Below, in pieces: positions 1 to 21,717 of a DNA stretch of 64,000 bases; the first letter of the stretch is position 1; each line of letters starts with the position of its first letter. The DNA is from Nemania diffusa (Eukaryota; Ascomycota; Sordariomycetes; Xylariales; Xylariaceae): assembly GCA_038501195.1 (NCBI GenBank), contig JBBPUQ010000006.1:2666001-2730000 (forward strand). The letters are read 5' to 3'. The notes beneath the pieces are model-generated. The model saw nothing but the letters and a program-made list of their open reading frames with translations. It was not told where the DNA came from and made no database searches. The position numbers and the translations under genes were made by a program.

Positions 1-3000
1 TAAATGCTAATTTTTTATATTTTTTTAATAAAAAACTTTTATAATTAATTTATAATAAAATATTAATTAAAAATATATTTAATACTAATAATAGTTTATT
101 AATAATTAATTTATAAATTTTAATTATTTATAAAATAAAATATTTTAAAATAAAATTTTTTAAAGTTAGCTATTTTAAAGTTATAACTAGTTAAAAAAAT
201 ATTATTATATATTGTTTGTTTTTTTTTTGTTTTTAGTTTTTTAATTTATTTTTTAGTTTTAATATAATATTTAAAATAATATTTTAAGTTTTTAGCTAAT
301 AAATAATTATAAAGTTATAATATAATATTAGTTTAGTTTATTTAATTTGTTAAAAGTTTAATATATATTTAATAATAAAATATTTTAATATTATATAATT
401 AATAATTATTATAAAAAATTTAATTTATTATAAATTTATTAGTTTTATTTTTTAATAAATAAGTTTTTTTATTACTATTAATATTTTTTTGTTATAAATA
501 TTATAATTAAATTCGATTTTATAAAACATTTTAAAATAAAATATTATAAAATACTAGTTGTTTTTTAAATTGTTTTTTTATAAAAAGCAATTTATAGTTA
601 TTTTATTTAATATATTTGTTTTTATATATATTTTTATATTAAATAAAAAATAACAAAATATTAGTATTAATAGCAAAGTTTATTTTAGCTAATTAAACAC
701 TTTTTAATATATTTTAAATTAATTAAAACAAATTGTAATAACTATTAACTAAATTAATAGTTTTATAATATAGCTAAATTTTTTAATAAATTATTTATAA
801 AAATTACAAAACTTTAAAAAAAACTACATTTTTTAAACTTAAACTATATTATATTTTTTAAATAGTTTTTATTTATAAATTATTTTAGTTTTTACTAAGT
901 TTATTTTAATTTTATTAATATTAATAATAAATTTTAAAAATTTAGTTTTAGTTATATAAAATTTATATTTTTTTAAATCTGTTTATAATTTTATAGTTTA
1001 TAATTTATTTAAAACTTTTTTTATATAAAGTTTATATTTAACTTTATTATTTAAATATATTAATATATTATTAATATATATTATATAAAATATATTAAAA
1101 TATTTAGCTAAAATATTATTAATAAATTATTAAAACATAATTAATTTATTTATTAAACTAAAAAATAAAACATTAAATTAATATGTTTTATATTATATAT
1201 AAAATATAGTTAAAAATTTATATTTTTTTATTATATATATATAATAAAATATTTATTTTATATTTAATTTAATATAAATTTTTATTTTTATAAAATAAAT
1301 AAATGTTTTATTAATTAAAAGTAAAAAATATTAGTTTTTTTATATTAAAAAGTTCAATTTTTAATAATTTATATATAGTTTTAAAAATTTGTTGTTTTTT
1401 TATATAAATAAAACTAATATTGCTTAAAATATTATAATAAACTTAATAAAACTTTTTATTAAGTTTTTATATATATATTGCTTATAAATTTTAGTTTTTT
1501 TTAAAAACATTTTATATAAAATATTATATTTTAAGTTTTTTAAATTTTTTATAAGTTTAATTTAGTAATTAATTTTATATTTTTGAAATAATATTTAATT
1601 AAAAGTTTTTTTACTAAATATATTAAAATATTTGTAATATTTTATAAATATTATTTATTTAGTTATTTTTTAAAAGTTTTTTTTTAAGCTTTTTAATTTA
1701 AATTTTTTTTAAGCAATTATTAAATTTATTTTATATAAAAAAGTTATTTTATATAATTTAATGTTTTTTTAATATATTATTATTACAAAAGTTATAATAT
1801 TTAATATAAAAATATTAATAAGTTAATATTTATATTATTTTATAATATTTTTTTACAGTTTATATTTGTTATAATAGTTTTTTAATTTAAGTTTTTTTTT
1901 TAATAAAACTTTTTTAAATAAATTTTTTTAAAATAGCTTTATTTTATTATTGTTTGTTAATAATATTTTTATTTTTTATAATTTATATTTTATTTAGTTT
2001 TTTTTAAACAAATTAACAATATATTAAAAAAGTTTAAATATAATATAAATAAAACTAATTATAAAAAAATATTTTTTTGTTTTTTTATTTAATTTTTTAT
2101 ATATAACTTTTAATTAAAAAATTTGTTTTTTTATAATAAATAAACTTTATAACTAAATAATATTTTATATTTTTTAAGTTATTTTAGTTTTAAATAATTT
2201 GTTTTATTATATAATATTAATTTAGTAATTTAAACTTTTTAATTTTTTTGTTTTATTTAATAATATATTTTTAATAAACTTTTTTTTTTATAATAAAAAA
2301 TATTAGTTTTTATTTTTAGCAATTAATTAATATATTATAATATATAAAAAACTTCTATTTAATAATTATATTATATTTTATATTTAATATTATTATAAAA
2401 ATATTTTAAATAATATATATATTAATATAAAAATAAATATTTAATATTTTAGTAATTTTTTAGTTACTATTGCTATTATATTTTGTAATAAAAATAAATT
2501 TAAAATTAAACAATTTAAAAAAGTTTAAAAGTTATATTATTTTTTTAATAAATTAAATATTTATATATAAATATATTTTAATTTTTATATTAACTAAAAT
2601 AAAAATAAAAAGTTTTAATTTATTAAATATTATTAAATAAATTATTAATAAAAGCTTTTTTTTAAAAATTTTTTTTAAAAAATCAAATAAAATTTTTTTA
2701 TATTAATTTAAATTTAAAATTAACAGTATAATAAACTTAAAAAAAAAATTAGTTGTTTTAAGCTTTTTTATTTTTTGAAATTTTTTTTTTTATATTAACT
2801 TTTTAATTATTTTTAAAATAACTTATTTTTTTTTTTATAATTACTACAACTTAAATAATATTTAAACATTTATATTTTTTATAATATAAACAGTTAATAT
2901 TTTAATAGTTAATTTTATAACAAATAAAGCAGAAACTTTTTTATATTAAAATTATTTTTTTTTTATATTATAGTTTTATATAAAACTTATATTTATTTTT

Positions 3001-3842
3001 TAATTTTTTAAATATTAAAATAAAAAAATATTGTTTAATAGTTAAAAATATAGCTTTATTAAGTAATAACTTTATAAAATAAAGTTATTAATAAAGTTTT
3101 TATATTATTAATAATTAATAATTTAAATATAAAAACAATAAATATTAAAAGTAATTTTAAAGCTGTTTATATTAAATATTATAATTTTATTTAATTGTTT
3201 TAATAATTTATTATATAAGTTTTATTTATAGTTAATTTAAAATATATAAATTTAATTAGTTAGTTTAATAAATTTAAATTAAAAGTTTAAAAATATTTTT
3301 AGTTTTTTTATTTTAAACTTTTTATATTTAGTTTAAATTTTTTTATATTTATAAAAGTTATTATATAATTTTAATAAATATTTTAAAATTTTTATAATAG
3401 TTATATATATAAAATTATTTTGTTTTAAAATTTATTTTATAAATAAAATAATTTTTAAAATAATTAATTTATTTATATATTTTAAAATATAATATATTTA
3501 GCTTTGTTTATTTATAAAATAATTTATATTTGTTTAAAGTTTATTTTTTATAAATAAATATTAGTAATAAAATTTAATTATAAATTTATTGTTTAAAAAA
3601 ATATTGTTAATAAAAATAAAAAAATTTATTATTTTTATATTTTGTTTTTTATTGTTTAAAAATATTAAACTTAATGTTATATTTTTTTTGTAACTGCTTT
3701 TTTAAGTAATATTTTTTAAAATAAATATATTATAAATAAAGCTTTTTGAAATAAATATATATAAAATAATAAACTTTTAAATATTTATTTCAAAGTTTAA
3801 ATTATTTTAAATAATTTAGTTTTAAATAGTTTTTTTAAATAT
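1..3842. repeat. AT-rich, RIP-like degraded block (left, outer part)
   Basis: Almost pure A+T with no credible open reading frame and no recognisable gene. Runs of A or T and short ATTA/TAAT words dominate. The few remaining C residues are nearly all preceded by A or G. This is the look of repeat-derived DNA after repeat-induced C-to-T mutation in a filamentous ascomycete. That origin is inferred; no element can be named in this stretch. Confidence 0.8.
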
Positions 3843-4119
3843 AGTTATAGAATAATAGCTAGAGGTATAGCTGTGCAAACATTTTTAGCTACATATTACT
3901 GTAATTTTATTTACTATTTTATAAAACTTTTTTAGCTAGTAAATACTGCTACTACATACTGCTTTAGGGATTTATTTAAAAACTTATTAAACTTACTTAT
4001 TTTAATTTTTTTATTTGTAGTTTAAATTACTTTTTTTTTTTTTTTTTTTATATTTAAATTTTTATACTAATATAGTTTTTTTTAAAAAGCTTTGTTTTTA
4101 AAATTGCTAAAGTATAACA
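3843..4119 (+). repeat. 5' LTR of the Ty3/Gypsy relic
   Basis: 277 bp, matching 10371-10647 over its full length including a 19-T run at the same relative place. Every difference between the two copies that I can see is a transition (C/T or G/A). They were therefore identical at insertion and diverged by C-to-T mutation on either strand. Confidence 0.9.
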
Positions 4120-5806
4120 ATTTAAATATTATTTATTTTTACAAAAGTATTAAAGACTGCTTTTTTAATTTATATTTTTTATACTTTAGAACTAACAAGA
4201 TAGGATCTGCTTTTGTACCGATTTTTACTTTAAACGAACTAAACCGATGTTTGCTATAACTTGATTTTGAAAAAAGCGCGCTTGATTAAAAAAAGCGGCT
4301 TGCAAAAAAGTCTGCTATATTATTAAATATATAAACTGTTTATATACAAACAAAGTACTTTATTTTAAAACATATTAAAAAGTTTTATTGACTTTTTAAA
4401 TTATATTATTTAAAAAACAAACTTAAATATTAAATAATGAACTAAAAAACTTTTGCTAGCTTATTATTAAGTTTTAAAATCAAGTTAATAAAAATGTGTT
4501 TAATAATAAATGCTATTATAATATATTTAAAAATATTAATAAAGCTATAAGCTAGCTTACTGAAAACTTTGCTGCTTTATACTTTAAAAGTAATAACTTT
4601 GTTTTTTTTTTTACTTTTTTTACTTAATTATATAAAAAAGCTTTTTTTAAATTTGATAAATTAATAAACTACAAAAAATTTAACTAGCTATTAACTAACT
4701 TTGATATATTTTATATAAAATTTAAGTTTTATATATTATTTTTATTTGTATTATATAAATAAGTATATAATTTATATAAACTTTTATACAAAACTAAAAC
4801 TAAACTAAAAAATGTTATCGAATAGAGTATTTTTATAATTAATACTAAATTAAAAAAGCTGTTTAACTAAAGTAACAGATAGTTTAAAGAATTAAATATA
4901 GTATAGCACTGTATAACAATTGATTATTTTTTAGCAGAATTAATAGATATAACTAAAGAATATAATCGATATTAAGTTTATACTATTAAAGTTAATAAAT
5001 ATTTTGTAGCTATAATAATAGTAAACTGCTATAATACTTTAAGTTTTATTTTAATAGAAGAAAATATTTGTAAATTTTTAAAAGTTTAAATATTTGTTTT
5101 TTATAACAATAAAAACAAAAATAAAGTTAAGTTTGAAATATAGCATTGCAATATAAAAAACTGACTTGTTATAAATAAAAACTGGTTTGTTATAAATGCT
5201 GCTAAAATAACTAACATTAAATTTTAGCTTAAAAAAACTGTGGCTAAATATTTATAATTATATCTAAGTTTTAATTACTTAAAAGCTATTTAAACTTTAA
5301 ACAGACTTTTTTTATATTTATAAAATAATTACTATAATATTAATATATTAGAAAAGTTTAAAAGTAAATACTGTGAATTTATTATAAAAAGCAAATATAT
5401 AATCGACAAGTTTTTTGCTTTTAAAAATGAATTTATTTGTTTTATAAGCAAAAACTGCTTGTTTAAAAATATATAAAAAAAAGAATTTAAAAATAAGTTA
5501 TTACTATAACTTTAAAATAAAACATTAGTAGAATATTTAAAAAAGGATTTTATTTTTAAATAATTTACTAGTTACTATATTTAAATTGCTTATTATTTGT
5601 TTATTAGCAACTAAAAATAGAATATAGTTTATAAAGTTAAAAATGTTTAAAAGTTTATTAATATTTTTAACGCTAGTAATAACAACAGTAGTAATTGTAA
5701 AACTAACTGTAATAAAAAAATTAGAAATTTTTTAGTTTTATTTTAAATATAGGTATTTTTAAAGCTTATATAGAAAAAAATATATAAATTAGTTTTTAAA
5801 AGATTA

Positions 5807-5848
5807 TGTTTTAACTGTTAATAAAAAGAATATGTTACTAAAGATTGT
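5807..5848 (+). pseudogene. Gag CCHC zinc-knuckle ghost
   Basis: Read in one frame, the codons give C-F-N-C, two stops, K-E-Y-V-T-K-D-C. This is the CX2CX4HX4C retroviral zinc knuckle, with the histidine now tyrosine (CAT to TAT) and two internal TAA stops. It places the nucleocapsid end of Gag here. The protein is not expressible. Confidence 0.7.
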
Positions 5849-6226
5849 TTTTTTAAAAACAATTTTGCTTAAAAAAAAGCTTGAGCTATATAAATTGTAA
5901 AGATATATTTTAAATTTTTTGAAGCAATTGCAGATATGCTTACTTTAAGACAGTTTAACAACGCTGGTTAAAAAGCAAAAAACTAATTTTAAAAAAAATT
6001 GACTTCCGCTTAAAAAAAGTGTTTCAAAATAAAGAAAAAATAAAACAAAACTTGGCTAATAAATATTTAAAAAAAAGATTTTTTTTATATATTTATATTT
6101 TAAGCAGTAATAGATTATTATTAACTAGTAAAAATATTTTTAAAAATATAAAAGCTAGTATATATATATATGTAAATATTTAATTTGCTAAAAAATTAAT
6201 TTAGCAATTACAACTATTAGTTATTA

Positions 6227-6300
6227 TTTAATTCTGATTATAAGAAATAATTAGTTACAATAGTAAAAGCAACTAGTTAATATATAAAATATTTTAAGTA
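6227..6300 (+). pseudogene. Possible retroviral-type aspartic protease ghost
   Basis: Between the zinc knuckle and the reverse transcriptase, one frame reads F-N-S-D-Y-K-K-stop-L-V. This fits the D-S-G active-site motif of retropepsins with Asp changed to Asn and Gly changed to Asp, both G-to-A changes. Position and pattern support the call, but the motif is short and the reading is inferential. Confidence 0.4.
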
Positions 6301-7185
6301 ACAATATGTATATAAAGTAAAGTATTTTAATAAATTTCTGTTTTTGTATTGGAAATATAATATAATATAATTTTGAGAAAGCTGTGGTTTGTAAAATATA
6401 ACATTTTATCCGACTGCAGATAATATTAACTGATATTTTTTTTTGACTTTTTAAGCGAAACTTTAAACAGAGATATTTTTATAAATAAAGCTAATATATA
6501 GTTGATATATTTATTATACTAAACAGACGCAAATAAATGTAATGCTTTTTTTAATAAAAAGACAAAAAGGAAAAAAAAGCAGCAAAAAGCGGTACAAGCT
6601 GTTAACACTTGTTATTAATAGGCTAATGTAATAATTTTATATAGAGACTTAGTTAAAAGTAATTTAGAGAAAATATAACAAAGCTTCGATAAAGCTATAC
6701 TGCTATTAACAAAGAAAATATAGTTTGAGCTTTTTGCTAAAGTTATTAAGTTAGCAAATATTGCTAAAAAATGGTATTATAACAGCTAAAGCTTTTATTA
6801 ATTTAAAAAAAATAGTATAAGCTAATATAAAAACTGTTTTATGCAAAAAATGATTATTATAAATGTAATTATATTTAAAGCTATTATTTAACGTAATAAG
6901 TTAATTTATAAAATTTAAGTTACAAATATATATTAAATTGATAAATTAATCGAAAATAAAAATATTAACGCAGAAAAGTTTTTTAATAAAAAAAATAAAA
7001 AACTAAAAAAGAAAGCTTTAAAGTTTATATTTATTAAATATTATAACTTATTGTATATGTTTAATAAAGTAAATTTTAATATTTTGTTTTTATATAAATT
7101 TAATGTAAACTATTATATCAAGTTTATTAAAAAAAAGTTTTTTACTGATTTAAAGTATAGTTTTTTATATAAAATATTTTTTGAT

Positions 7186-7800
7186 AAGCTAGAAATTGTA
7201 CGCAAGTACTTAATTAATAACTTTTAAAAAAGATTTATTAAATTTAACAATATATTATATATATTTTCTGTTTTATTTGTTAAAAAGCTTTATAGCAGAT
7301 TATACTTTTATATAAATTACTGCAAACTAAATAAATTGTTAAAAAAAAACTGCTACTTTTTACTTTTGATCGAAAAAATTTTATTATATATATTTAAAGC
7401 TAAAATTTTTACAAAAATCGATATTTAACAAATATTTTATTATATTAAAATATAACTTAGTTAAAAAGACTTAACGACTTTTTGTATATGATATAATGTT
7501 TATAGATATAAAGTTTTATTATTTGGACTAACAAACGGGCTTTTGACTTTTTAAAAATATATCAATAATATATTGTTTAATTATTTGAATAACTTTTGTA
7601 GTGTATATATAAATAATATTTTGATTTATTTTGACAATTTAGAAAACTATTGTTTTTATATAAAAAAAATTTTAAAAAGACTATATAATATAAAGCTTTA
7701 AGCCGATTTAAAAAAATCTGAATTTTATATTACTGAAACTAAGTTTTTAAAATATATTGTTAAAATAAATAGTATTTAAGTTAATTTTGACAAAGTTAAA
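7186..7800 (+). pseudogene. Reverse transcriptase ghost (Ty3/Gypsy type)
   Basis: In-frame fragments match the Gypsy RT fingers and palm in order: VRKYL, then VLFVKK at about 7269-7286, LNKL, LLIEKIL, and KIFTKIDI ending near 7425, where the first catalytic aspartate survives. The YxDD box reads V-Y-I-N-N-I-L-I-Y at 7603-7629. Both catalytic aspartates are asparagine (GAT GAT to AAT AAT, with Y-I-N-N at 7606-7617). Several stops interrupt the frame. Confidence 0.85.
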
Positions 7801-8104
7801 GTAGTAATATATTAAAAAGTATTTATGTAAATAAAAAAAGTGCAATTGTTTTTAAGATTTTATAATTTTTATTGCAAGTTTATTAAAGTATATAGTTGTA
7901 TTGCTATGCTTTTAAATCAACTAATTTGAAAAAACGTGCTTTTTGAATAAATAATAGCTTGTTAAAAAGTTTTTGATAGATTAAAAGCTGTGTTAATAAA
8001 AATATTTATACTATAGTATTTTGACTATAACTTGTTTACTAAAGTAGAAATAAATTTGTTTAACAAAATAGCAGCAGAAGTATTATTTTAGTTATTTAAA
8101 AACA

Positions 8105-8290
8105 GCAAATAGTACTTTGTAGCGTTTTTTTTTAAAATAATACAAAACGCAGAGTTTAATTACAGCATTTATAACAAAAAAATGTTAACAGTAATATTAA
8201 TATTTAAAGAATAAAAATTTAAGCTAGTAAAAGTTTGTAAAGAACTTTTTTTAGTTATTATAAATTATAGTACTTTAAAATACTTTAAAT
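8105..8290 (+). pseudogene. RNase H ghost
   Basis: Downstream of the RT, one frame reads F-F-F-K-I-I-Q-N-A-E-F-N-Y-S-I-Y-N-K-K-M-L, then an L-V-K-V segment followed by a T-L-K-Y-F segment. This matches the Gypsy RNase H pattern FxSKxLxxAExNYxIYxKEML followed by the HxSLxYF region. Confidence 0.75.
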
Positions 8291-8739
8291 AAAAATAGCA
8301 ACTAAATTTATGTTAAGCTAGTTAAATAGTATTTTTTTTAAGGTATAATTTTGTTATTATATATTAATTAAGCAAAAATAACATAGTAGTAAATATATTG
8401 TTTAAAAAATAAAAAGATATAATAATATAACAAGCTAAAAAAAAAGCTTAATGCAATTTTGCTTTATTTAAACTTATATATAGCGTGCTATTTGAATAAA
8501 TAAATAAAGTAACAAGTGATATAACAGTAGTTACTTTTGAGCTTTAAAAACTAAAAATAACAAAGATTTATTTAGTAGACTAAGTTTTATGAAAAAACTG
8601 TTTAAACTTTAGAATGAAAATCTATTGGTAGAAAACCTGTAATATATAAAAGCATTAGAAAGTAAAAAAAAAACTGACTTTTTATAAAAATAAATTGGTA
8701 GTTTTCGACTAACTTTTTTTTTACATTTATTTGATTCGT

Positions 8740-9420
8740 GAAGTTTACGAGCTTATTACAACAGTTTATTTTAGAAAAAAAAAAACATATATATTGCTAG
8801 CATTTTGTTATTAGTAGTTATATATATATAAAGACTGCGATATATATGTTATTAATTGCTTAAGATATTGTTTTATAAAAGTTTTTTATAACAAGACTTT
8901 AGAACAACTAAAGCTGTTTTTTATATTTAATAAAATATAATAATACTTAGTTATAGATTTTAAATTTATGCTAAAAAATAAATATAAATATAATAACACT
9001 TTAGTAATAGTAAACAGATTAAATAAAAAAATATAGACAATATTATATACTATTTAGGCTACTGTAGCTAATGCTGCAATAATGTATTACTAAAGGCTTT
9101 TTTGTATATTTAGGTTGCTTACTACAGTTATATTTAATAAAAGTTTTTAGTTTATATTAATATTTATAAACAAATTATATAAAATTATAAGCGTAATATA
9201 TTGCTTAGTTAGCTTAAATTACTATAAAACAGCAAAGCAAACTGAAATTATAAATAAATATTTAAACTAGCGATTAAAGCTTTATATAAATTATTATTAA
9301 AATAATTAATTTAAAAAGATTTTTGTTATAAATTATATATAAGCTTTTTTATTATATAAATTTATAAAATTGTTACTGTATAAAATAAAAATAGGATTTT
9401 TTATGCTTTTTTACTTTAAT
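8740..9420 (+). pseudogene. Integrase ghost
   Basis: The frame shows CDIYVINC (the CxxC half of the H2C2 zinc finger), then VIDFKFM followed by NKYKYNNTLVIVNRLNKK. The latter matches the core 'DF...GYDN..VVVDRL.K' of Gypsy integrases. The first catalytic aspartate (in IDF) is kept. The second, normally in S-D-R-G, reads F-N-K-S, that is Asp to Asn. Stops are frequent. I cannot tell whether a chromodomain followed. Confidence 0.75.
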
Positions 9421-10370
9421 TAAGAAAATCAAATAACAAAAAAAAATTAGCAAGACTTTTTTTTTCAAAAAAAAAAGTTAAGAAAAAAAATATAAAACTG
9501 CGCTATTAAAATTAAAAAATATATAAATATAGCGAAGTTTTATATAATATATTTACAAAAGCAAATAATAAAGCAGGCAAATAAAACCCGATAAAAGTTA
9601 AACTTTAAAGTTAAAAACTAAATGTTTATTTTTAAAAAACAACAGTTTTAAAATACTAACTATTTTTTTAATAAACTTAATTATTTAATAACTTAATAAA
9701 CTTTTAAAATTTTCGATTATAATTTTAATATTAACATTTTTATTTTAGAAATGCTTTTTTTATAAAAAGCTATAAACTAATATTATATAAACTGATTAAA
9801 GAAATACTCAAATAACTTTTTGCTAAAACAAAAAACAAAAAACTTTAAAAAAAAGATTATTTAACTAAATAACAAAAAAAAAAAGTTTATAATATATAAA
9901 GTTTATATATTTTATATATATTATAATAAACTATAATATTAAGTGTATTAAAAAAAATAAAATATAAATAATAAATAGTATTTAGCTAAAAACTTTAAAA
10001 ATAGCGCTAAACTACTAAAGAAGTTTTATAATAAAAACTTTAAAGCACTTAAACTACTTTTTAAATTAAACAATTAAATAAATATAGCAAATAAAAAGGC
10101 TTTTAATAAAGTATACAAAAATAACAATAAACTGGTTATATAAAGTCGCTTAAAAAAAAAATAAAAAGCATAATTATATAAAAGCTGTAATAATAAACCG
10201 ATTTTTTAACAATTGTATAAAAAAACTTGTTTAATAATGTAACAAAATAAAAGCTTTGATTTGATTTAAACAAGTAAATATTTAAAGCTATTTTTTTTTT
10301 AGCTAGAAAGTACAATTTAATATATAACGGTTTGACTTGTGGACGAGCCCGTTTTTTTTTAAAAAGAAGT

Positions 10371-10647
10371 AGTTATAAAATAATAGCTGGAGGTATAGCT
10401 GCGCAAGCATTTTTAGCTATATATTACTGTAATTTTATTTACTACTTTACAAGACTTTTTTAGCTAATAAATACTGCTATTATATACTGCTTTAGAGATT
10501 TATTTAAAAACTTACTAAATTTATTTATTTTAATTTTTTTATTTATAGCTTAGATTACTTTTTTTTTTTTTTTTTTTATACTTAGATTTTCGTACTAATA
10601 TAGTTTTTTTTAAAAAGCTTTGCTTTCAGGATTGCTAGAGTATAACA
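10371..10647 (+). repeat. 3' LTR of the Ty3/Gypsy relic
   Basis: Second 277-bp LTR copy. A purine run (AAAAAGAAG, 10361-10369) lies directly upstream, as expected of a polypurine tract for plus-strand priming. This copy keeps more of the original C and G residues than the 5' copy at several sites. Confidence 0.9.
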
Positions 10648-13095
10648 AATATAATAATAAATAAAATATTTTTTATTAAAATAAATTAACTAAAAATAAT
10701 TTTATTATTAATATTATTTATATAAATATAACTTTTTTAAATAAAAAGCTGTTAAATAAATATTTATTAAATAAATTTTTGTTTAATAATAATTTATACA
10801 ATAAATATTTTTTTATATATTTTAATTAAAGCTTTTTAAAAAACTTTGTTGTAATTTTATAGTTTTTTAATTTTTTTTTTGTATATTTTTAAAATTTGTT
10901 TATTTTTAACTAGTTTTATTTTAGCTTTTTATAAAAACTATTTATTTTTTTATATAAAATTTTTTATAATATAACAAATAATATATAAATAGTTTTAATT
11001 TTAACTGTTATTAAAAGTTATAATATATAGTTAATTTATTATTTTATAAAATATTTAAGTTATAATAATATAAATTTATACTTTATTAAAAATAAACTTA
11101 AGTTTAGTTTTATTTAATTTTTTTTAAATATTATAATTAATAATAAACTTTTTATTTTTAAATTTATGTTTTGTTATATTAAATAAAAAAAATGTTTTAT
11201 ATATATAGTATTATTTTTATTAATAAGTTAACTTATGTTTATTTTTTATTTAAAAAAAAATATTTTGTTAAATTTTATTAATAATTAAATAAAATATATA
11301 AAAGTTTTATACTGTTTTGTTTTTTATATAGTTTTAATATTATTAATAAATATTTTTTTTAAAACTATTAAAATATTTTTTAATAAATTTTAATATAATT
11401 TTTTATAAAATAATATTATAAATTATAAACTTTTTAACTAAAAAGTTTAAAGCTATTTTTTTTATATTGAAATAACTATTTTTATTTTTAAAATAAAAAT
11501 AAAAATTATTTAATATAAACAATTTTTTTTTTTTTTTTTTTAAGTGTTAAAAAAATCTATAATATTATAGCTTAGCATTTTTTTTTTTTTTTTTTTTTTT
11601 AAAATATAAAGTTAGTATAAAAAATGTAAAAAAAACTTAATATCAAATAAAAAATTCAGTATTTAATAATAAATCAATATTTTAATATTAGTATTAAATA
11701 TATTTAATATTAAATTAATATTAAATTAGTATTAAATTAAGCTTTTTAATATTAATTTATAACAAATAAATAAAACAAGTTTAGTATTGTAAAAGCTAAA
11801 AAAAAACAGCTAATATAGCATATATAAAAATACTATATATTTGAAAAAAAAATATTAAATTAAAAAAAAAAAAAAAAAAAAAATTAAGTTTACAACAGTA
11901 AACTTAATTATATATAAGCTTTTTTTTTTATAATAAATACTTTTTTTATTGTTTTAGTATTATTTGTTATATTTTTATTGTTTGTTTTTAATATAATAAA
12001 ATAAATATTTGTTATAAAGTATAATAAATGCTTTAATATATTTTTTATATATTGTTTTTTTATATAGTAAATGCAGTTTAACTATAACTATAATTAAAAA
12101 ATAATATTAATATATTAATAATAATATATATAACTTAAATTTTAAAAAGTTTAATTTTATTAATATTTAATATTTAAAAAATTATTGCTTTTATTTTTAA
12201 AAATATTAATTTATTTTTAGTTGTAAACTTTGCTATTTTAATCGATTATTTTATATTAATAGTTTAAACATTTAAAATTTTATTAATATTTAGTTTTAGT
12301 TTTTTTAAAAAAGCAACTTTTATTATAAATAATATAAAACAATAAATTAGTTTATTTTTATTAACTTTTATAAAAATTTATAAATTTTTAATATTTATAA
12401 CTATTAAATAAATTTTAAATAAAATAAATATATTATTTTTAAAAGTTTTGTTTTTAAATTTTAAAATAAATAAATAGCTAGCTTTATAAACTATTATAAC
12501 ATAAATATTAATAGTACTAAATTTATTTACTATATATTTTTAAATAAATTAATTAAATATAACTTTTTTATTAGTAATAGTTTTACTGCTAAAAAAATAA
12601 ATAAATTATAATTATAAATAAACTAAAACAGTTTTTTTTAATTTAATAAAAATAATAGTATTAAAATATTAGCTAATTTTATTAACTAATTTTTTAATAA
12701 GTTTTTGTTATAAATTTTAGTTTATTTTATTAAAAAATTTAATAAATCTATTTAATATAATAGTAAAATTTATAAAAACTTTTTTTTATATTTTAGTGTT
12801 ATATTTTGTTTTTACAAAATAATTTATAACTAGTTTTTGCAAAAAAAACTTAAGTTTAGCAATATTTTTTTTTGTAGCTATTTTTAAAAAAGCAAATATA
12901 TTACTAATTTTAACTTTTTTACATTATAAATTATTTTTAAACAAAATAAAAAACTTTATTTATTTAATAAATTAAAAGTTTAATATAATAAATTAATATT
13001 ATAATATAAAAAGTTTTATTATTTATAAATAAAGCTTATAAAAGCAAATCTTTAATATTTTAAATAAATCATACTAAAAAAAAATATTGTTAGTA
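10648..13095. repeat. AT-rich degraded block (left, inner part)
   Basis: Returns to nearly pure A+T after the retrotransposon. Long homopolymers occur (T runs near 11525-11542 and 11580-11600, an A run near 11864-11883), as do simple ATTAAAT-type repeats around 11690-11760. No gene is visible. The border with the balanced island is sharp, between about 13,080 and 13,170. It includes a small inverted repeat, GCGTCTA (13107-13113) with TAGACGC (13132-13138). Confidence 0.8.
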
Positions 13096-13173
13096 TTTTT
13101 AATGCAGCGTCTACTTATGTATTAACAGTTTTAGACGCATAGACAATAAATAAAAGAGTAGGTATTTGTTCAA

Positions 13174-14032
13174 TTAAAAAGAGGCGGATGGCAGTTGCAC
13201 GCATTCATGTAGTGAGGTGAAGTTGGCAATAGGAATCGCCTGTTGCTTTCCCCAGATGAAAGTACCTAGACTGACATCACCGCGACACTGGACCGACTGT
13301 CGAATCCTATCTAAGCAATGCCCTGATCTACTTGTTAGTCCATTCTAGTACCTGAAATATATGATAGACTTCGGCTCACGGGCATGCTTAAGATTCATAT
13401 TCTTGATCTCGTCTGTCATATTGGGGAAGTAGTGGTCCATGTAGAGCAACCGAGTTACTCGTCGCAGGCAATGAAGGTCGTGGAAAACCGTCATTGTGCC
13501 AATATAATCACCATCTGGAAGCTGGATTCCCCTTGGCCTACCCAAGCGAGCTATATCTTCAGGGTGCAGGCGAATGGTAGAGTCTTACGTCTATTAGAGA
13601 TAAGTGACCCGATCCGAAGTGAATGTGTTAGGGGCTTACGTGCTAGCAGTTCTTCCCAGGCAGCTTCCCTTTCGTCGCTAGGCTCTCCAAAGTACTTGGT
13701 AGCACTCGTTATACTGTCATTGAAATATTGTGCTTCGTACCTTATTGACGCACTTGCAGGTGCTTGCTCTTGTGTTAGCTGATGGTATTCTGAAGACACT
13801 AAGGGTGATCGAGAGGCATACATTGGATCATATCGTGAACAGCATCGTGGTTCGTCACTCTGTGTTGGCTCTTGAATATCGTGAGCAAAAGTATTGCTGA
13901 ATAAAAGGTAACAAGAGAGCCGTGAAGAATCCACGGCTTGTAAGAGGGCCGCTTTAGGCGACCATACTCTATGTCACGATGTGTCGCCTTTCTAGGGTGA
14001 TCCACGTTGTCGAGGAATCGTGTTGATTCCAT
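13174..14032 (-). CDS. UstYa-family (DUF3328) oxidase, four exons, 217 aa
   Basis: Likely catalyses oxidative cyclisation of a RiPP precursor, as UstYa/UstYb homologues do in ustiloxin and related dikaritin pathways. Exons by my reconstruction: 14032-13822, 13762-13640, 13550-13380 and 13322-13174. Introns are 59, 89 and 57 nt with donors GTATGC, GTAAGC and GTGAGC; introns 1 and 3 have CTAAC branch sites. Every junction keeps the frame and restores family sequence. The product has a cytosolic tail, one transmembrane segment (about residues 36-53), an SPA segment (71-73), YFGEPS...AAWEEL (94-109), and both diagnostic HxxHC motifs, HDLHC (135-139) and HARHC (167-171). It ends with the usual W...H.C region. 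A shorter reading that skips intron 3 loses the second motif. The gene is intact although its stop lies only about 80 bp from the AT-rich block. It is transcribed away from the repeat precursor at 15333. The family call is firm; the substrate is inferred. Confidence 0.88.
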
Positions 14033-15332
14033 TGAGACTTTTTCTCTAAGTTCTAGAAACGTGATAGTCTTTGAAGCTATGGTGATATTAGTGTGTATTG
14101 GGCAAGACCACAATAAGACCTAATCGAAAGGAGACTATTACTGCGTGTCGTGAAGTTGTGTATGTAGCAGAAGTCTGTTTCGGCCGTTTTCCTTCAAATC
14201 TTGGACCGCTATCAATTCAAGATGCGGCTTCACCGATATTCAGAAACCCAGAAATAAAATCTTGAATATGCATGTGTTCCCATTTTTCAGTTAAGCCAAG
14301 GAAGTCTATTTCTTTTGTTGCAGTGCCCTATTGCATTGCATTACATTGCATTGCAGGATACTCTGAACCATAGCGTATAACTCTCATCGAACCCCGCGTT
14401 ATCATAGGCCTAGCCATTATAAGAATGTCTCACTTCTAAGCGAGATTTCGGAATCCGAGCATGTAAGACCATTGCTGCAGATTAACCCCACAGGTGACGA
14501 CTTCAACATATTTAGACTTTTGACTTCAGGATTGTTAACATGGCAAAAGCAAAATAGTTAATTGTATTTATCCCGGGACATGTTCAATTGAAGTGAGGCT
14601 GTAGATGAGTACGTCAGTTGATAAAATTAGTACAAGCGTGTTGGGATGTCGTTTAGTAGTGTTCCTAGCACCCAATTCAGACTTATAAATTTCTAACTAT
14701 TTGCTAACAAGCCTGTTATACACGGTATAATCCATGACAAGCACCTGTACCACATTCGATCAATTCGAAATAGTATTTTATGTAAATCATGATGCGACTT
14801 AGCTAGTGTAATGATTTATGCCTTCCACGCTTAATACATAATCCGCGTGTAAACAGTACCGGTGTATAACCTACACTCGTGTAGAGTCAAGCTAGCTCAG
14901 GTGCATGATCCGAATATGTTAGTGTGCTATTGTGCGAATCCCATGATTGAATCATACTAGCCTGGCATTTGCATTGAACTTCGATGAGGACAAATCGCGC
15001 ACTGCAAAAGCAAGTGAGCTCATAGACGATGTGGCGTGAGTACCATGTCTGTGACTACTCATCAGGGGCTATGCATATGTCGTTTGCTTGATCCGATCTC
15101 GCCATTTCGGTCAGCGTGATATTAATGAATCAAAAATTCAAAATGGAGGTATGCATGGATGAACGTGTCGTGTCTTGAAATTTGAAAGCCCGAGTTGTTA
15201 TTAGAAAATGCAGACATATAAATCAGTACCACGTTCCCCTTTATTAACGGCAATACAAAGTTCAATCACTCATAGACTCTCCAAGTATCAGCAACTTCAC
15301 TAAACACTTCAACCCTCCTAGTATCAGTTAAA
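14033..15332. promoter_or_regulatory. Shared divergent promoter region between UstYa gene and precursor gene
   Basis: 1.3 kb with no supported gene between two divergent start codons, so the pair may be co-regulated. It contains a pentamer array of five ATTGC-type units (14330-14354, the third unit ATTAC). A TATA-like ATATAAAT lies near 15215, about 115 bp before the precursor ATG. The regulatory roles are inference. Confidence 0.5.
14330..14354. repeat. ATTGC pentamer array in the divergent promoter
   Basis: Five consecutive 5-bp units, ATTGC x2, ATTAC, ATTGC x2. The array is isolated in otherwise unstructured intergenic sequence. It could be a binding-site cluster or a chance microsatellite. 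Confidence 0.6.
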
Positions 15333-15680
15333 ATGCGTTCCTATATCCTAATCATTGGGGCCGTCTATGCCGCCTTTGCTAGCGCTATCCCAATTGGCTC
15401 TACCTCGGCACTTGTAAACAAACGTGCCGAAGCCGACGCCGATTACATCTTCATCGACCTGCCAGATAAGAGAGACCTGGCCACCCAGCGATCTGAAGCA
15501 GACAGTGACTACATCTTCATCGACCTCCCGGACAAGAGGAGCTTGTCTGAGAAACGTGCTGAGGCAGACTCTGACTACATTTTCATTGATCTGCCTGACA
15601 AGAGAGGCCTGCCTGAAAAGCGTTCCGAGGCAGATAGCGACTACATCTTCATTGATCTCCCCGATAAGCGCTCTAATTAG
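15333..15680 (+). CDS. Repeat-containing, Kex2-processed RiPP precursor (dikaritin-like), 115 aa
   Basis: A secreted precursor. A signal peptide covers about residues 1-18 (cut near AFASA), then a short spacer ends in KR (30-31). Four units follow with exact 22-residue period; the tyrosines are at 38, 60, 82 and 104. Each unit is an acidic AEAD/SEAD leader, the invariant core DYIFIDLPD, then KR. Short linkers (DLATQR, SLSEKR, GLPEKR) separate the units. Kex2 would cut at each KR, and the acidic A/S-E-A-D leader resembles dipeptidyl-aminopeptidase spacers. The core is identical in all four copies while its codons differ synonymously, which indicates selection on the peptide. A Tyr-starting, Ile/Asp-containing core beside a UstYa gene matches ustiloxin/phomopsin-type precursors, but YIFIDLP is not a core I recognise. 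Single exon; ATG context GTTAAAATGC. An alternative is a pheromone or other Kex2-processed repeat protein; it lacks the Trp/Cys-rich core of alpha-type pheromones. Confidence 0.88.
   Translation: MRSYILIIGAVYAAFASAIPIGSTSALVNKRAEADADYIFIDLPDKRDLATQRSEADSDYIFIDLPDKRSLSEKRAEADSDYIFIDLPDKRGLPEKRSEADSDYIFIDLPDKRSN
15465..15674 (+). repeat. 66-bp in-frame tandem repeats of the precursor gene
   Basis: Units repeat every 66 nt (22 codons). Between copies the differences in the core are third-position changes, for example GATTAC/GACTAC, ATCTTC/ATTTTC, GACCTG/GATCTC. Linker codons vary more and change amino acids. Confidence 0.85.
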
Positions 15681-16135: not shown

Positions 16136-18748
16136 TCACACCAGAGTAACCCTCTCTGGTCTCCAAACAAAACCCAACTCATTCAGTAGCGATTTTGGCC
16201 AGTCGTATAAGAACACTATGTGGTCTTCGGGTCTCGGATCTCGCTCAAGAAGTGCAATCATATTCTCCCCGGTCAGTCGACAAAATGGCTCCAGGTCGCG
16301 GATAAGCCTATACAACCTCTTTTCCTGTGCGATGCTTATAATTGCTTCCAAAGACATTCTGACTTGAATAGGCGGTTTTAGACGCTTCAGATGTTTACTA
16401 TTCATTAGGTCGTCCCAGTCGCTATGCCCCTCAACCTTTGTCTCTGGAGAAAGTCGTTCTTGTGATGATTCCGAGTGGCGGCTGAGTATATCCGAGAAAG
16501 AATTGATCGTGTCGATATCATGTAATGTAAAATAGACGAAATCATCATCTAGATCCGGTTGGTATTTGCTTGAGAGCTTTTGAAGGCACGATTTATAAGC
16601 TAGTCGAACTGGCAAGCAGGAACCATATACGGAATCAAGTTCTGAAATCTGTTTCGAGGAGTCCTCCTCACAACGGATAGCAATCAGGAAGGAGATGATG
16701 ATTTTCATTCCTTCTTGAGTTTCAGAAAGTCCTCCTGGGAAAATCAAGTTGAAAACAAAACGAGCTCCACCACTTGAGATCTCATCTGCGGTGGCCTGCT
16801 TGACATCACTGAGTAATTTGTGAAGACTGCTGAGAATTACCTCGTCGGATTTTGGTATGGGCATGGGGACGCGCATTTTGAGGTTGTCTACGGACAGAAA
16901 CACGGAAGCTCTCAGTCGGCAGCACCATACAAGCTTGAAATGTCCTTTGTCTTCCGACTCGGTTGCTAGAAGGAGGAGCGGTGCCGGAGAATCTATGTGA
17001 TAATTCTTTGCAAGTGTTGATTCCCATAGTAGGAACGCGTGGCATGGCTGTTCCAGGATGTGGATAGGGGGCGTCCAAACTGCAAAGCGCGCCGCAGATG
17101 TTGGGCCCCTAGCCCATAGCCAGGTATATGGATACTCCCCTGTTGCGCTGAACTGGTGTGCCACTTCGAAGATGCGAACAACATATAGATGTAATGAGGC
17201 AGTTTTTGACTCTACCTGACAATTCGAATGCCACAATAATTTATGTGGATGCAATGAGAAATATTGCTCTCCAGGAAATTTTTCTTGCGAGAGATAGGCT
17301 ATCGAAATCCCTCGCCCTACCAGATTATCGATGTCCCCAGGGGACGGAAAGTCTCCAAAATAACGAAGACTTATAAATGATCCCCAGTTCTTAGGTTCTT
17401 GGTCAACCGCAGGGTACCAATTTTGAGTTCCTACTGTAGAAATCCCGGATGAATTTGGATCCTTGCCTTCTAGTTGTATCCTAATTTGGGGCTTCCAATG
17501 CGCCATATCTTCAATTCTCGGTAGCCATGACGGATAGTTAGTCTTGCCCTTAGAATGTGCTGCGAAGATAAGCGGCCAGGTTTCATGCTCAACGAGTAAA
17601 ACGTACGCCATGACGCCTACTACTACATCCCTGTAGGGTAGCGAGTAGTCTGGTGTGAGGTCTGTAGACAGCTCCCGCTGGAGTAGTCCTACCACGCCGA
17701 ATATCTTGTCTCGCGGATCACTCGCTTGACTTTCCATTGTCTGCTCCAAAACGCCTAATATGGTATGACGATTCAGTTTGACAGCATCCCCCATGTACTG
17801 TAGCCAGTTCTTAGAATCTTCCTCTTGCTGATTCGATGTAATGGCCTGAAAAAGTTCTCCACGTCCTAGGTAGACATCTACTTGGCCCAGCGGCATGACG
17901 GCATAAGGCGCGAGAATAAGCTCCTGTATAATCCATACTCGCCCAAAGTATCTTTTTGATAAGAAATGTTGAATGTCTCTGCCCAAAAGCAACTCCTTCA
18001 GTGCTGAAGCCCGTACTTTTGGCCGGAAGCGTTGCTTAGTCGGCTCGACGACGCTGTTTCCTAGATACACTAAAACGCGCATACATTGTATATATATGCG
18101 GTCCATAAGAGCCACCTGAGCAGATCGCTCCAAATCACTTCTCTGGTTAATGCAGATGGCATCTACCCAGACATTACGACCGCCGCTATAGGGCCTGAGA
18201 TATTGTAGCAACGACCAGCAGTTTCGTGTGACAAGGAGAACCTCCCAGAACTTCCCCAAATATATTGGCATACACGGTGTGGAATTGCCATCTTCGTCAC
18301 CCCAGGTGTAGGACACAGTCTCGTATTCAGGACAATCGGCCAAAGGGAACTCCTCTAGTGTAGCATGAATTGGGTCTCCAGAGGCCTCCGATCCGAAGAC
18401 ATAAAGCAACCTAAAGTGGTTCTTCTTGAGAATGAAGGGATACACCTCTGACAATGAGTGATCTATTTCGTTTATAGAGCGCGATGCTGTCGCGCTTGTT
18501 GCGAGATTGTCATATTCAGTCCCAGACCTATGGGTGTAAGGGACTTTAGGAGGCCACCAGAGATCCAGCTGTCCAATCTGTTTCTCCTGCAGTAGACCAG
18601 GTTCACCACTAGTCGAAGTCTGCTCGGAGACAAGCGTCTGATTAACTCGTAAAGCGTCGTTGTTACAGGTTCGGCAGAAAGGAATGCCTTCTGGCGAAAC
18701 CACATCTGGACTGTCGCACCATTCTAGATGCCAGTGGCCATGACTCAT
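16136..18748 (-). CDS. HET-domain (heterokaryon incompatibility-type) protein, 870 aa
   Basis: Single uninterrupted exon. The HET domain occupies about residues 140-300: YETVSYTWGDEDG (142-154), NVWVDAICINQ (192-202), an MDRIY segment (215-219) and RVWIIQE (270-276). These are the three conserved HET blocks. The amino-terminal region has a WC...FCRTC cysteine pattern (10-28), often seen at the start of long HET proteins and possibly metal-binding. The remaining roughly 570 residues match nothing I recognise and include the RDLEPF and RDPRPEDH segments near the end. HET proteins trigger cell death in vegetative incompatibility or respond to non-self; most genomic copies have no assigned partner. 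The start at 18748 gives the WC motif. The gene converges on the RiPP precursor, with no evidence of a shared function. Confidence 0.92.
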   Translation of the reverse strand: MSHGHWHLEWCDSPDVVSPEGIPFCRTCNNDALRVNQTLVSEQTSTSGEPGLLQEKQIGQLDLWWPPKVPYTHRSGTEYDNLATSATASRSINEIDHSLSEVYPFILKKNHFRLLYVFGSEASGDPIHATLEEFPLADCPEYETVSYTWGDEDGNSTPCMPIYLGKFWEVLLVTRNCWSLLQYLRPYSGGRNVWVDAICINQRSDLERSAQVALMDRIYIQCMRVLVYLGNSVVEPTKQRFRPKVRASALKELLLGRDIQHFLSKRYFGRVWIIQELILAPYAVMPLGQVDVYLGRGELFQAITSNQQEEDSKNWLQYMGDAVKLNRHTILGVLEQTMESQASDPRDKIFGVVGLLQRELSTDLTPDYSLPYRDVVVGVMAYVLLVEHETWPLIFAAHSKGKTNYPSWLPRIEDMAHWKPQIRIQLEGKDPNSSGISTVGTQNWYPAVDQEPKNWGSFISLRYFGDFPSPGDIDNLVGRGISIAYLSQEKFPGEQYFSLHPHKLLWHSNCQVESKTASLHLYVVRIFEVAHQFSATGEYPYTWLWARGPTSAARFAVWTPPIHILEQPCHAFLLWESTLAKNYHIDSPAPLLLLATESEDKGHFKLVWCCRLRASVFLSVDNLKMRVPMPIPKSDEVILSSLHKLLSDVKQATADEISSGGARFVFNLIFPGGLSETQEGMKIIISFLIAIRCEEDSSKQISELDSVYGSCLPVRLAYKSCLQKLSSKYQPDLDDDFVYFTLHDIDTINSFSDILSRHSESSQERLSPETKVEGHSDWDDLMNSKHLKRLKPPIQVRMSLEAIISIAQEKRLYRLIRDLEPFCRLTGENMIALLERDPRPEDHIVFLYDWPKSLLNELGFVWRPERVTLV

Positions 18749-19574
18749 ATCGAAAAGAGAGGCTGTCTACTTTGCTTAAAATGGGAAACAACTCCAACAT
18801 CAAAACCAAAGTTTAATAAGCCAGGATATTTCGAATTCAAGTTAAAATGCAGACAAGGGGGCACTTGTGACAATGACTTGTCCACCCCGCTCGCTTGCTC
18901 TTTTAAGCAATATACGCGAAAATTTTGCTGAATTGCATAATTAGCGGGCTGTTCCTAACATCAATAAAGAGACTATATGGAGAGAGCACTATAACCACTG
19001 CTTCGTCATTAGGATTACGATTTAACTTATGATTAAATTTATCTAAACCGCTTCCCAGGGTTGATCTAGTATGTTAAACTCAGTCTAAAGATGCATCGAT
19101 TACTAATTAGATTTAGTCACACTTCAATTTTCGTAAAGCTAGGTCGTTAACCTACACGTTTGCTATATTCCGACTTTGTGTATTAAGAAATTAAAATGCA
19201 ATCATCTACCTTGATCTTTTACCTTTTAGTCTTTAATATAGCGAGTGGTTTTACAATCATCCATGAAACGCCGCCCAAAGGCGCAGGATGTGGAATACAT
19301 TAGATTGTTTTCACAATACCCCCTCTCCCCTCAATCGTGAATCCAGCAGCACACTAGAAGATATCATTTAACAGGTTGGAATTCCTGCTTAGTCTGCATG
19401 ACAAGGATATCTGAAAGACTCTCTTAGAAGTACGTATAATTATGTCTTAAGCGTCAACGCACTTGTTACTAAATTTGTTACAGGCGTATCACGTGTACTC
19501 GCTAGATAGACGAAGTACTTGTAGTGACGAGCAATGATTAGCTAGAAGAGGTACATCGGACCCTTAACCCTTAA
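18749..19574. other. Intergenic region upstream of the HET gene
   Basis: About 0.8 kb, A/T-leaning but not RIP-like. It lies between the HET gene start and the S53 peptidase stop, both on the minus strand. It should hold the HET promoter. I see no gene, RNA or repeat in it. Confidence 0.5.
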
Positions 19575-21717
19575 TCAAGGTAGGCTTAGCCATAAATCCA
19601 ACATCTTAGGGTAATTTGGCGTTCCCAGCCCGGTCACTGGATCCCAGCCTTTGGCAGCAGAAAAGCCATTTGTACCACATCCGGGGTTCGTGCCGTTGGT
19701 GATGTCGTTTAGCACCTGGGGGTTCTCATAAAGTACCGGATTCACGAAACCGAGGGGGCCTTTGCCCACCTTGATGCGCTCATCCACAATACGGTTGAGC
19801 AGCGACGCGAAGATGGGTGCAGACATGCTCGTCCCGCCGCTCGTGCCAAAACTGCCGTTGTACCAGCCGGGGTAGTTCCACCCATTGGCAGACACGTCAG
19901 GAATGCCGTGGCCATTGCGGTTATCTACATCAAAATCATGTCAGCAATTTCTATTATCCCTTGGTTCTTTCCCGGATGATGGTAAAGGGTAAACACAAAA
20001 GGGAAGTGGATTTTGACGTACAAACACCGCCGTTAGTGGCGTTTTGCCAGTTTCCGTTGTAATAGTAGGGGTACGACGGGTTGGCCGTGTCGAAGAAGTG
20101 TTGCACGGCCTTCTGCTGATACGCGGGGATGGGGAAGATGTTGGAGAAGCCGCCGCTCGAGCTATAGTTGCCATTGAGGCGGTGCTCCTGCACGAGCACG
20201 GCGCTCTCGGGCTCGGAGACCGTCTGGCCGGGAAAAACCTCGGTGGCGCCCACGTTGGTGACCCACGGGCAGCTGCAGGCTTCCGAGGGAGTGAAGACAG
20301 CGTCGTTATCTCCGAGGCACCCGTAGTAACTCCCATCTCCGTACGTGCCGTAGTTATAGCCACCGACGCCCGTGTCGCCCGACGCGATCACGATGGTCAC
20401 GCCCTGAAGCGCTAGCTTCAAGTACTCGTTGCACTGCCGCTCCTGGTAGGAGTACGGCAGGTCCTGCTCGTACACGCCATATGAGATGCTGATGATATTG
20501 GTCGGCTCATAAGTGCCGCACTGGAGCTTCCCGAGGTAAGGTTCCTCGTCTGCCGGGCTGGCCTTGTCCGGGTATTGCGGGTCTAGGCGTGAGTCACCCG
20601 TCTCGCCAAAGGCTGTATAATTGCAATACGAGCCATCAAGTGCGTCGAGAAAGGTGTTGAAGATTCCCCTGCTGCCAGTGAAATATGCGTAATACTCATC
20701 ATCAGTCTGGTATAGGGTAATGGTCTGGGGGAAGATGATGGGATACGCAATGGTGAAATCAAGAAGGCTTTCTCCGCCAAGGAATCCAGCCAGGGGCGCA
20801 ACACCACCATCAATCGAGTCAAGCTTTGGATGCGTGCCATTAGCGATAGAAGGCGTGTAGGCGTTGAAAAACAAGTCAAGATCCGGCTGGTCATAGTAGT
20901 CGCCTTCTTCAAAGATGCCCAATGAGTTCTTGGAGCTGACTTTAGCTTTGGGGGAGGGCGCTGAGAAGTCGTAGAGGGCTCGGATGCAGGCTGGCGTAAT
21001 GATACTATCGCAGTTGGAAAGATCATCGGGGTCTCTTGCGAGGACCTCCTCCACATTCTTGACTGGTCGGGGCAGCGTATTCTTGGAACGTCTGTGCGAA
21101 ACGCTACTTGTAGTGTCTCTCTTGGCGGCGCGCTTACGGCGAAGGCGCTTCAAGTCCATCGTGGTAGACTTAACTCCAGGAGTAATGTAATCGACATGCT
21201 CCTGGATATGTGCTGGCAGGTAATAAGCATTATTGCCAACCACGACCTTGCTATTATCGTCGTCGTCATCATGCTCGCCATTGTGGTAATACTCCGTCTT
21301 TAAGAGGGCCTCGGCCTCTTTAACGGTGGCGTCGAAGGCTATCCAAAGCTTATTACTGCTATGAGTAATGCGCCTGCTTGCAATGCCGGCGTCAACAAGC
21401 CACCCGGTAACCGCTTCCACAGAGGCATCCGAAGGGCGGAAAGAGTTGATGACCCGGTCCTGGCTCCAATGCTTTCCAAAGTTAGGCGATGACGGATGCG
21501 AAACATCCATGAGCCACTCCTCGGCCTTGGCTATAGCCTCGACATTGTGCTTGAGACCAATACGCATAGGAAGGATGGAATCCTCAGGAGCACGCTTGGT
21601 GAGGCCGGGATGGCGACGTCCACGCTTCTCGTGCAAGACATGGGCCGATGGCACGACGGCAGCCATTCCGGCGCCCACAAGGACCGACACGGCTTCGAGG
21701 AGGGCAATCAAATGCAT
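19575..21717 (-). CDS. Secreted S53 (sedolisin / tripeptidyl-peptidase-type) serine peptidase, 681 aa
   Basis: Two exons, 21717-20022 and 19924-19575, joined across a 97-nt intron (donor GTACGT). Joining restores Y-N-R-N-G-H-G-I-P-D-V-S-A, a conserved S53 stretch. A signal peptide is at residues 1 to about 20. A pro-domain of the pro-kumamolisin type runs to about 200-230 and contains basic sites (KRGRR at 31-35, RRKRAAKR at 193-200) suited to maturation. The catalytic pair E316/D320 (GGESLLD), oxyanion D448 (ASGDTG) and nucleophile S598 (GGTSMSAP) are all present. A carboxy-terminal calcium site is suggested by the DIT.G and GWDPVTGLG segments. The length fits fungal sedolisins. The enzyme probably acts outside the cell at acid pH, removing tripeptides or degrading protein. 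It lies near the RiPP locus, but I see no specific link; ustiloxin-type clusters use an S41-like peptidase instead. Confidence 0.93.

What the first reader, a model, noticed from the sequence alone, without database searches (positions are those of the whole stretch)
13174..15680. Candidate new dikaritin-type RiPP locus: UstYa oxidase divergent to a four-repeat DYIFIDLP precursor
Seen: a secreted precursor with four identical Tyr-led cores between KR sites, divergent to a complete UstYa-family gene with both HxxHC motifs. Known: this pairing defines ustiloxin/phomopsin/asperipin/epichloecyclin-type fungal RiPPs, where UstYa-type proteins cross-link the Tyr side chain to neighbouring residues. 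Inference: the product is a cyclic, possibly Tyr-ether-linked, peptide from the DYIFIDLP segment. The core differs from the cores I know (YAIG, YVIPID, FYYTGY). The locus is compact, with one UstY gene and no tyrosinase or methyltransferase in view.
Basis: partly seen in the sequence, partly recalled or inferred. Interest (0 to 1): 0.92.

Follow-up and report, generated by a model that had tools for sequence, protein, structure and literature searches.

The report
Transposon-broken fungal cyclic-peptide gene cluster
A fungus related to Xylaria carries an intact gene for a repeated, secreted peptide of the kind that other fungi turn into cyclic peptides, but the two enzyme genes that should modify it have each been split by a decayed repeat insertion, so the pathway here is probably dead or crippled.

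Summary
Window 15333-15680 (+) encodes a 115-aa secreted repeat precursor with four identical DYIFIDLPDKR segments, divergent to a UstYa/DUF3328 gene (14032-13174, -) with both HxxHC motifs. The core looks constrained: the differences between the four DNA copies are all synonymous.

Two claims fail. The UstYa gene is not complete: its conserved last ~50 residues lie 27.5 kb away, across an AT-rich insertion flanked by an 11-bp target duplication. And the cluster held more than one UstY gene: beyond that insertion lies a second one, itself split inside its second HxxHC motif by a ~13.5-kb block with terminal direct repeats. Orthologues of both UstY genes sit on contigs of equal length in Ustulina deusta and in Xylaria sp. 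FL0043, so they probably belong together.

Best reading: a dikaritin-type (Kex2-repeat precursor + UstY) pathway of Xylariaceae, with no tyrosinase or S41-peptidase match on its contig, taken apart by RIP-mutated repeats. New member of a known kind, with a core not found in the papers searched, and probably non-functional in this strain.

The parts
15333..15680 (+). precursor gene, 115 aa, single exon, four repeats; includes stop
   Evidence: sequence read directly and translated; single copy in the genome
15441..15464 (+). core DYIFIDLP, repeat 1
15507..15530 (+). core DYIFIDLP, repeat 2 (preceding site reads TQR, not KR)
15573..15596 (+). core DYIFIDLP, repeat 3
15639..15662 (+). core DYIFIDLP, repeat 4
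13822..14032 (-). UstYa head, exon 1 (transmembrane segment)
   Evidence: splice model; start agrees with orthologue P0001
13640..13762 (-). UstYa head, exon 2
   Evidence: supported by tblastn with orthologues
13380..13583 (-). UstYa head, exon 3 with first motif HDLHC
   Evidence: one of 7 intron-2 models that keep the frame
13198..13322 (-). UstYa head, exon 4 up to the break; second motif HARHC spans intron 3
13174..13197 (-). 7 residues (QLPSASF) and stop read from inserted DNA
   Evidence: residues unlike those of the orthologues
13198..13208 (-). ATGAATGCGTG, head-side copy of the 11-bp duplication; the other copy is at C6:2651694-2651704, outside the window
1..13197 (.). window part of the 27.5-kb AT-rich insertion (C6:2651705-2679197) that splits UstYa
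   Evidence: composition, RIP-type dinucleotide indices, tail across the block; tail-side end recurs at 8 other places

Best explanation
This is what is left of a dikaritin-type RiPP cluster of Xylariaceae: a Kex2-type repeat precursor and two UstY-type copper oxidases, possibly with an MFS transporter and a Zn2Cys6 regulator. In an intact version (inferred) the precursor enters the secretory path, Kex2 cuts at the dibasic sites, and the two membrane-anchored UstY enzymes oxidatively link the Tyr of the DYIFIDLP segment to a neighbouring residue. Shown here: in this assembly two AT-rich repeat insertions split both UstY genes; UstYa loses about 50 conserved C-terminal residues, the second UstY is cut inside its second HxxHC motif; the precursor gene is intact. 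Inferred: the second UstY is inactive, UstYa probably so, and the precursor, if expressed, gives linear Kex2-cut peptides or nothing useful.
For: Precursor with a core conserved through synonymous-only change. UstYa match 1.1e-44. UstYa tail (P0001 residues 215-268, 76% identity) on the same strand 27.5 kb away, with ATGAATGCGTG on both sides of the block. Tail-side end of the block found at 8 further places. Second UstY gene: head-side match to P0015 up to residue 206 and tail-side from about 207, inside its HQLHC; its block has terminal direct repeats (score 161, maximum of 20 shuffles 45) that differ by 52 transitions and 1 transversion over 264 positions, and the end sequence has 40 scored matches including itself. 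RIP-type indices in the blocks but not in the normal-GC part. UstYa and second-UstY orthologues on contigs of equal length in U. deusta (481,305) and Xylaria sp. FL0043 (184,186). No tyrosinase (0 of 26 matches) and no S41 peptidase (0 of 3) on contig C6.
Against: The UstYa head keeps its transmembrane segment, both HxxHC motifs and the Cys of HECV, so activity of the short form is not excluded. Database models P0011 and P0013 (2 of 14 homologues) also lack the tail; I took them for faulty gene models without testing it. No precursor relative was found among 5.8 billion proteins, so the link of precursor to these UstY genes is not shown in a second species. Equal contig length is only indirect evidence of linkage, and the other two closest UstYa species (X. 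venustula, X. bambusicola) had no second-UstY hit on a contig of the same length. The head-side end of insertion 1 does not recur and its terminal-repeat tests were inconclusive, so its element type is unknown. One assembly only; no expression or chemistry data.
Confidence: 0.8

Rival explanations
1. The shortened UstYa still works, alone or with another UstY of the genome acting in trans, and the locus still makes a cross-linked peptide, as in one-UstY pathways of the asperipin-2a type.
For: Both HxxHC motifs are present in the head. One DUF3328 protein is enough for asperipin-2a (PMC7329392, section 7). The genome has many other UstYa matches (52 exon-level matches in all).
Against: The lost tail holds a Trp that is invariant in the 17 UstY proteins I aligned (17 chosen of 27 held), and the tail is present in 12 of 14 homologues. 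In relatives a second UstY goes with it, and that one is destroyed here.
Confidence: 0.1
2. The precursor is a Kex2-processed linear peptide (signal or pheromone-like) and its nearness to UstYa is chance.
For: Most KEPs (6120 of 7878) have no DUF3328 neighbour (PMC7329392, section 7); no precursor relative was found.
Against: Divergent neighbour 1.3 kb from UstYa; the core holds a Tyr, as is commoner in DUF3328-linked KEPs (65.6% against 38.2%); 5 of the 20 other fetched UstYa loci of this genome also hold a KR-flanked repeat ORF, while the criterion fired 0 times in two control stretches.
Confidence: 0.05
3. The splits are assembly errors and the genes are whole.
For: AT-rich DNA is hard to assemble; only one assembly was available.
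Against: An 11-bp duplication at break 1 and a pair of terminal repeats differing almost only by transitions at break 2 are signatures of insertion; 55.6 Mb in 16 contigs is a contiguous assembly.
Confidence: 0.04

Closest known systems
UstYa and second-UstY orthologues of Ustulina deusta and Xylaria spp. (database entries, not characterised)
   Same: UstYa 62-67% identity for the four closest; second UstY 57% (P0015) and 64% (P0020) to the head-side pieces
   Different: There both genes are whole in the database models; a precursor is not known from the protein database searched
Ustiloxin and phomopsin pathways (dikaritins)
   Same: Kex2-type repeat precursor with a Tyr core and UstY enzymes, several per cluster
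   Different: They use a tyrosinase; here none on the contig.
Asperipin-2a pathway
   Same: Repeat precursor with DUF3328, grouped with dikaritins (passages of PMC9233826)
   Different: One DUF3328 protein there; two UstY genes here, both split
Epichloecyclins (GigA)
   Same: Multicore Kex2-type precursor with Tyr-Ile linkage thought likely (passages)
   Different: Different core; comparison of precursors not run
CctR (cyclochlorotine hydroxylase)
   Same: DUF3328 family, HxxHC pair as copper site (PMC12435403, section 3 read)
   Different: Acts on a non-ribosomal peptide; intact

Membership tests
Dikaritin-type RiPP cluster | secreted precursor with repeated cores at dibasic sites | tested here: met
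   signal peptide by eye
Dikaritin-type RiPP cluster | DUF3328/UstYa gene beside the precursor | tested here: met
   PF11807 E 1.1e-44, 1.3 kb away
Dikaritin-type RiPP cluster | working set of UstY genes in this strain | tested here: not met
   both UstY genes are split; whether the UstYa head still works is not tested
Dikaritin-type RiPP cluster | Tyr in the core | tested here: met
   4 of 4 repeats
Dikaritin-type RiPP cluster | cross-linked Tyr product | not testable with these tools
   needs LC-MS
Ustiloxin/phomopsin subtype | tyrosinase in the cluster | tested here: not met
   0 of 26 tyrosinase matches of the genome on C6
Ustiloxin/phomopsin subtype | cluster peptidase of the S41 kind (recalled, not from a call) | tested here: not met
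   0 of 3 S41 matches on C6
UstYa (PF11807) protein | both HxxHC motifs | tested here: met
   HDLHC and HARHC in the head
UstYa (PF11807) protein | C-terminal region to the profile end | tested here: not met
   match ends at 209 of 220; of the 50 other genome matches, 37 end at 213-220 and 13 are fragments ending at or before 183

The most novel reading that the evidence does not exclude
The pathway is not dead: the C-terminally shortened UstYa, alone or with another UstY of the genome acting in trans, still modifies the constrained core, so the insertions changed the product rather than ended it.
Probability: 0.12. Interest if true: 0.55.

Novelty: new member of a known kind. Interest (0 to 1): 0.32.

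Why it matters
It adds a Xylariaceae dikaritin-type locus with an apparently undescribed core and two UstY enzymes that are conserved in relatives. It is also a clean case of repeats and RIP taking a RiPP pathway apart while the precursor stays intact, and a warning that such a cluster can look compact and whole in a single window when its other parts lie about 27 to 45 kb away. Relatives with both UstY genes whole (Ustulina deusta, Xylaria sp. FL0043) are the better place to look for the product.

Tried and rejected
The precursor searched against 5.8 billion proteins shared words with 1297 candidates, none at E<=1. A search of its own genome found only itself. A paper search for the core letters found 0 papers; sequences printed only in figures, supplements or closed journals would be missed. 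Terminal-repeat tests on the 27.5-kb insertion were inconclusive: direct score 134 against a maximum of 122 in 20 shuffles, inverted 141 against 130, in very AT-rich DNA. Its tail-side end is a dispersed repeat ending in a short TATC run, which with an 11-bp duplication would suit a non-LTR element with later nested insertions, but the element type is not established. The AAA_31 Pfam hit of the precursor (E 0.0074, below its cut-off) is taken as chance. Seven intron-2 models keep the UstYa frame; I chose the 56-nt intron because it agrees with the orthologues. That UstYa loci of this genome sit in AT-rich DNA as a rule is rejected: 3 of the 20 fetched loci hold AT-rich 500-bp stretches. The invariance count used 17 proteins; P0011 and P0013, whose models lack the tail, and eight hits were left out.

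Mended since then: residues read from the insert are 7, not 8; orthologue tails run 37-50 residues in P0001-P0010, not 33-55; GC of the first insertion is 2-22% per 500 bases, not 5-18%; the intron-2 alternatives were recounted (and re-reading).

Full report
WHAT IS THERE. The precursor gene at 15333-15680 (+) begins MRSYILIIGAVYAAFASAIPIG and holds four copies of [AS]EAD[AS]DYIFIDLPDKR separated by short spacers. DYIFIDLPDKR is identical in 4 of 4 copies although 9 of its 33 nucleotide columns vary; all copies encode the same residues. That is the mark of purifying selection on the peptide over a long time, not of a fresh expansion. The gene is the only match to itself in its 55.6-Mb, 16-contig genome.

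THE DIVERGENT ENZYME GENE. On the minus strand, 1.3 kb away, four exons (14032-13822, 13762-13640, 13583-13380, 13322-13174; introns of 59, 56 and 57 nt) give 228 aa, PF11807 E 1.1e-44. HDLHC lies in exon 3; HARHC spans intron 3. The nearest proteins are from Xylariaceae: Ustulina deusta 65%, three Xylaria 62-67% (14 proteins at E<=0.001 of 161 candidates). I infer a host in Xylariales; no call named it.

THE ENZYME GENE IS SPLIT. The window protein follows its orthologues to HECV and then ends in 7 other residues and a stop, whereas P0001-P0010 go on for 37-50 residues. Two database models, P0011 and P0013, lack this region too. The Pfam match stops at 209 of 220; of the 50 other UstYa matches of the genome 37 end at 213-220 and 13 are fragments ending at or before 183. 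A genome search with P0001 found its residues 215-268, 76% identical, at C6:2651550-2651711 on the same strand, 27.5 kb away; that piece is still an open frame. ATGAATGCGTG stands at the end of the head (window 13208-13198) and again at the start of the tail (C6:2651704-2651694). The DNA between, C6:2651705-2679197, is 2-22% GC in 51 windows of 500 bases read; about 1 kb just left of the window, C6:2664991-2666000, was not read. The tail-side end recurs at 8 other places at 83-90% identity; the head-side end does not recur. I read this as an insertion with target duplication.

A SECOND UstY GENE, ALSO SPLIT. A small island of normal GC at about C6:2649.7k-2651.7k holds the tail of UstYa and, downstream on the same strand, the N-terminal part of another UstY gene with its first motif HTLHC. 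Its C-terminal part lies at about C6:2636.2k-2636.0k beyond another AT-rich block. Orthologue P0015 (284 aa) matches the head up to residue 206 and the tail from about 207, so the cut lies inside HQLHC, its second motif (residues 205-209). The two ends of the block match as direct repeats (161 against a maximum of 45 in 20 shuffles) and differ by 52 transitions and 1 transversion over 264 positions, as expected of terminal repeats hit by RIP. The end sequence has 40 scored matches including itself, of 168 candidates. Dinucleotide indices of the blocks also fit RIP (TpA/ApT 1.14-1.32, (CpA+TpG)/(ApC+GpT) 0.30-0.59, against 0.94 and 1.12 in window 13301-50000).

DO THE TWO UstY GENES BELONG TOGETHER? 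Head-side pieces of the second gene found 13 proteins at E<=0.001 of 78 candidates. Two lie on contigs of the same length as UstYa orthologues: U. deusta 481,305 bp (source numbers 298728 and 298731) and Xylaria sp. FL0043 184,186 bp. This is indirect; the contigs could not be opened. The other two close UstYa species, X. venustula and X. bambusicola, had no such partner in the list.

SURROUNDINGS. Beyond the second UstY tail lie an MFS transporter gene (C6:2633501-2635459; two of three ORFs match MFS_1, best 1.3e-11) and a Zn2Cys6 regulator (C6:2630621-2632444); that they belong is a guess from position. On the other side of the precursor are a HET-domain ORF (16136-18766, -) and an ORF with a pro-kumamolisin domain (19954-21771, -). 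None of 26 tyrosinase and none of 3 S41-peptidase matches of the genome is on C6. Methyltransferases were not searched for, beyond the ORFs given to Pfam.

HOW COMMON IS THE PAIRING HERE? By my grouping the 52 matches fall into about 28 loci. I fetched 20 others of them. In 5 of these 20 (L012, L018, L021, L023, L025) one ORF holds at least three dibasic sites and a 5-residue word at least three times; the same test fired 0 times in window 16001-50000 and in L038. Seven further loci were not fetched. So the pairing is ordinary in this genome, and this locus is one of several.

HOW IT PROBABLY WORKED, AND NOW. Known: the DUF3328 protein CctR is membrane-anchored, dimeric and copper-dependent, with the HxxHC pair as metal site, and Ala changes in it abolish activity (PMC12435403: abstract and all of section 3 read). 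Known: 1758 of 7878 KEPs have DUF3328 neighbours, on average 1.7 each (PMC7329392: abstract and section 7 read). Known: dikaritins link Tyr to Ile or, in asperipin, through other Tyr links (passages of PMC9233826). Precursors of dikaritins carry a signal peptide and repeated cores (PMC12048977: abstract and section 22 read). Inferred: Kex2 cutting, trimming and oxidative linking of the core Tyr in intact relatives. Shown: both enzyme genes are split in this assembly. Inferred: the second UstY is inactive (cut in its metal motif); UstYa probably is (tail with a Trp invariant in 17 chosen proteins missing), though its head keeps both motifs.

NOVELTY. The kind of locus is known; the core and this UstY pair seem undescribed. 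The core letters occur in none of the 5.39 million papers held. The wider searches were seen as listings; five papers were opened, in the parts named. PMC8403587 (passages) reports ustiloxin-like clusters in Hypoxylaceae found by similarity to known precursors.

LIMITS. One assembly, no reads, no expression, no chemistry. Splice sites and signal peptide are read from sequence and homology. The structure tool was off.

Noticed in passing
L012:7137-7757 (+); L018:7999-8895 (-); L021:7931-8218 (+); L023:2325-2714 (+); L025:6859-7587 (+): Five other repeat precursors with KR-flanked units near UstYa genes of the same genome, for example QYQLVVSVHDIEEPAP x4 in L023, beside the closest UstYa paralogue.
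   Followed up: partly
L029 (C9:2502300-2512200) and L020 (C3:4014900-4024800): Tyrosinase matches lie among UstYa matches (C9:2506228-2506974; C3:4022895-4023625), so these two loci look more like ustiloxin-type clusters; the repeat scan found no precursor in either.
   Followed up: no
L017, C2:1316121-1316261: A copy of the terminal repeat of the second block lies between two UstYa matches at C2:1315284-1317076.
   Followed up: no
window 51000-64000: A second AT-rich block (9% GC, RIP-type indices) bounds the normal-GC part of the window.
   Followed up: no
window 25061-25786 (+): ORF with a weak HSP70 match (E 3.3e-05), possibly a fragment or an exon of an actin/HSP70-like protein.
   Followed up: no
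P0012 (Elsinoe australis): A UstYa-family protein is named protoheme IX farnesyltransferase by its source, which looks like a wrong name.
   Followed up: no
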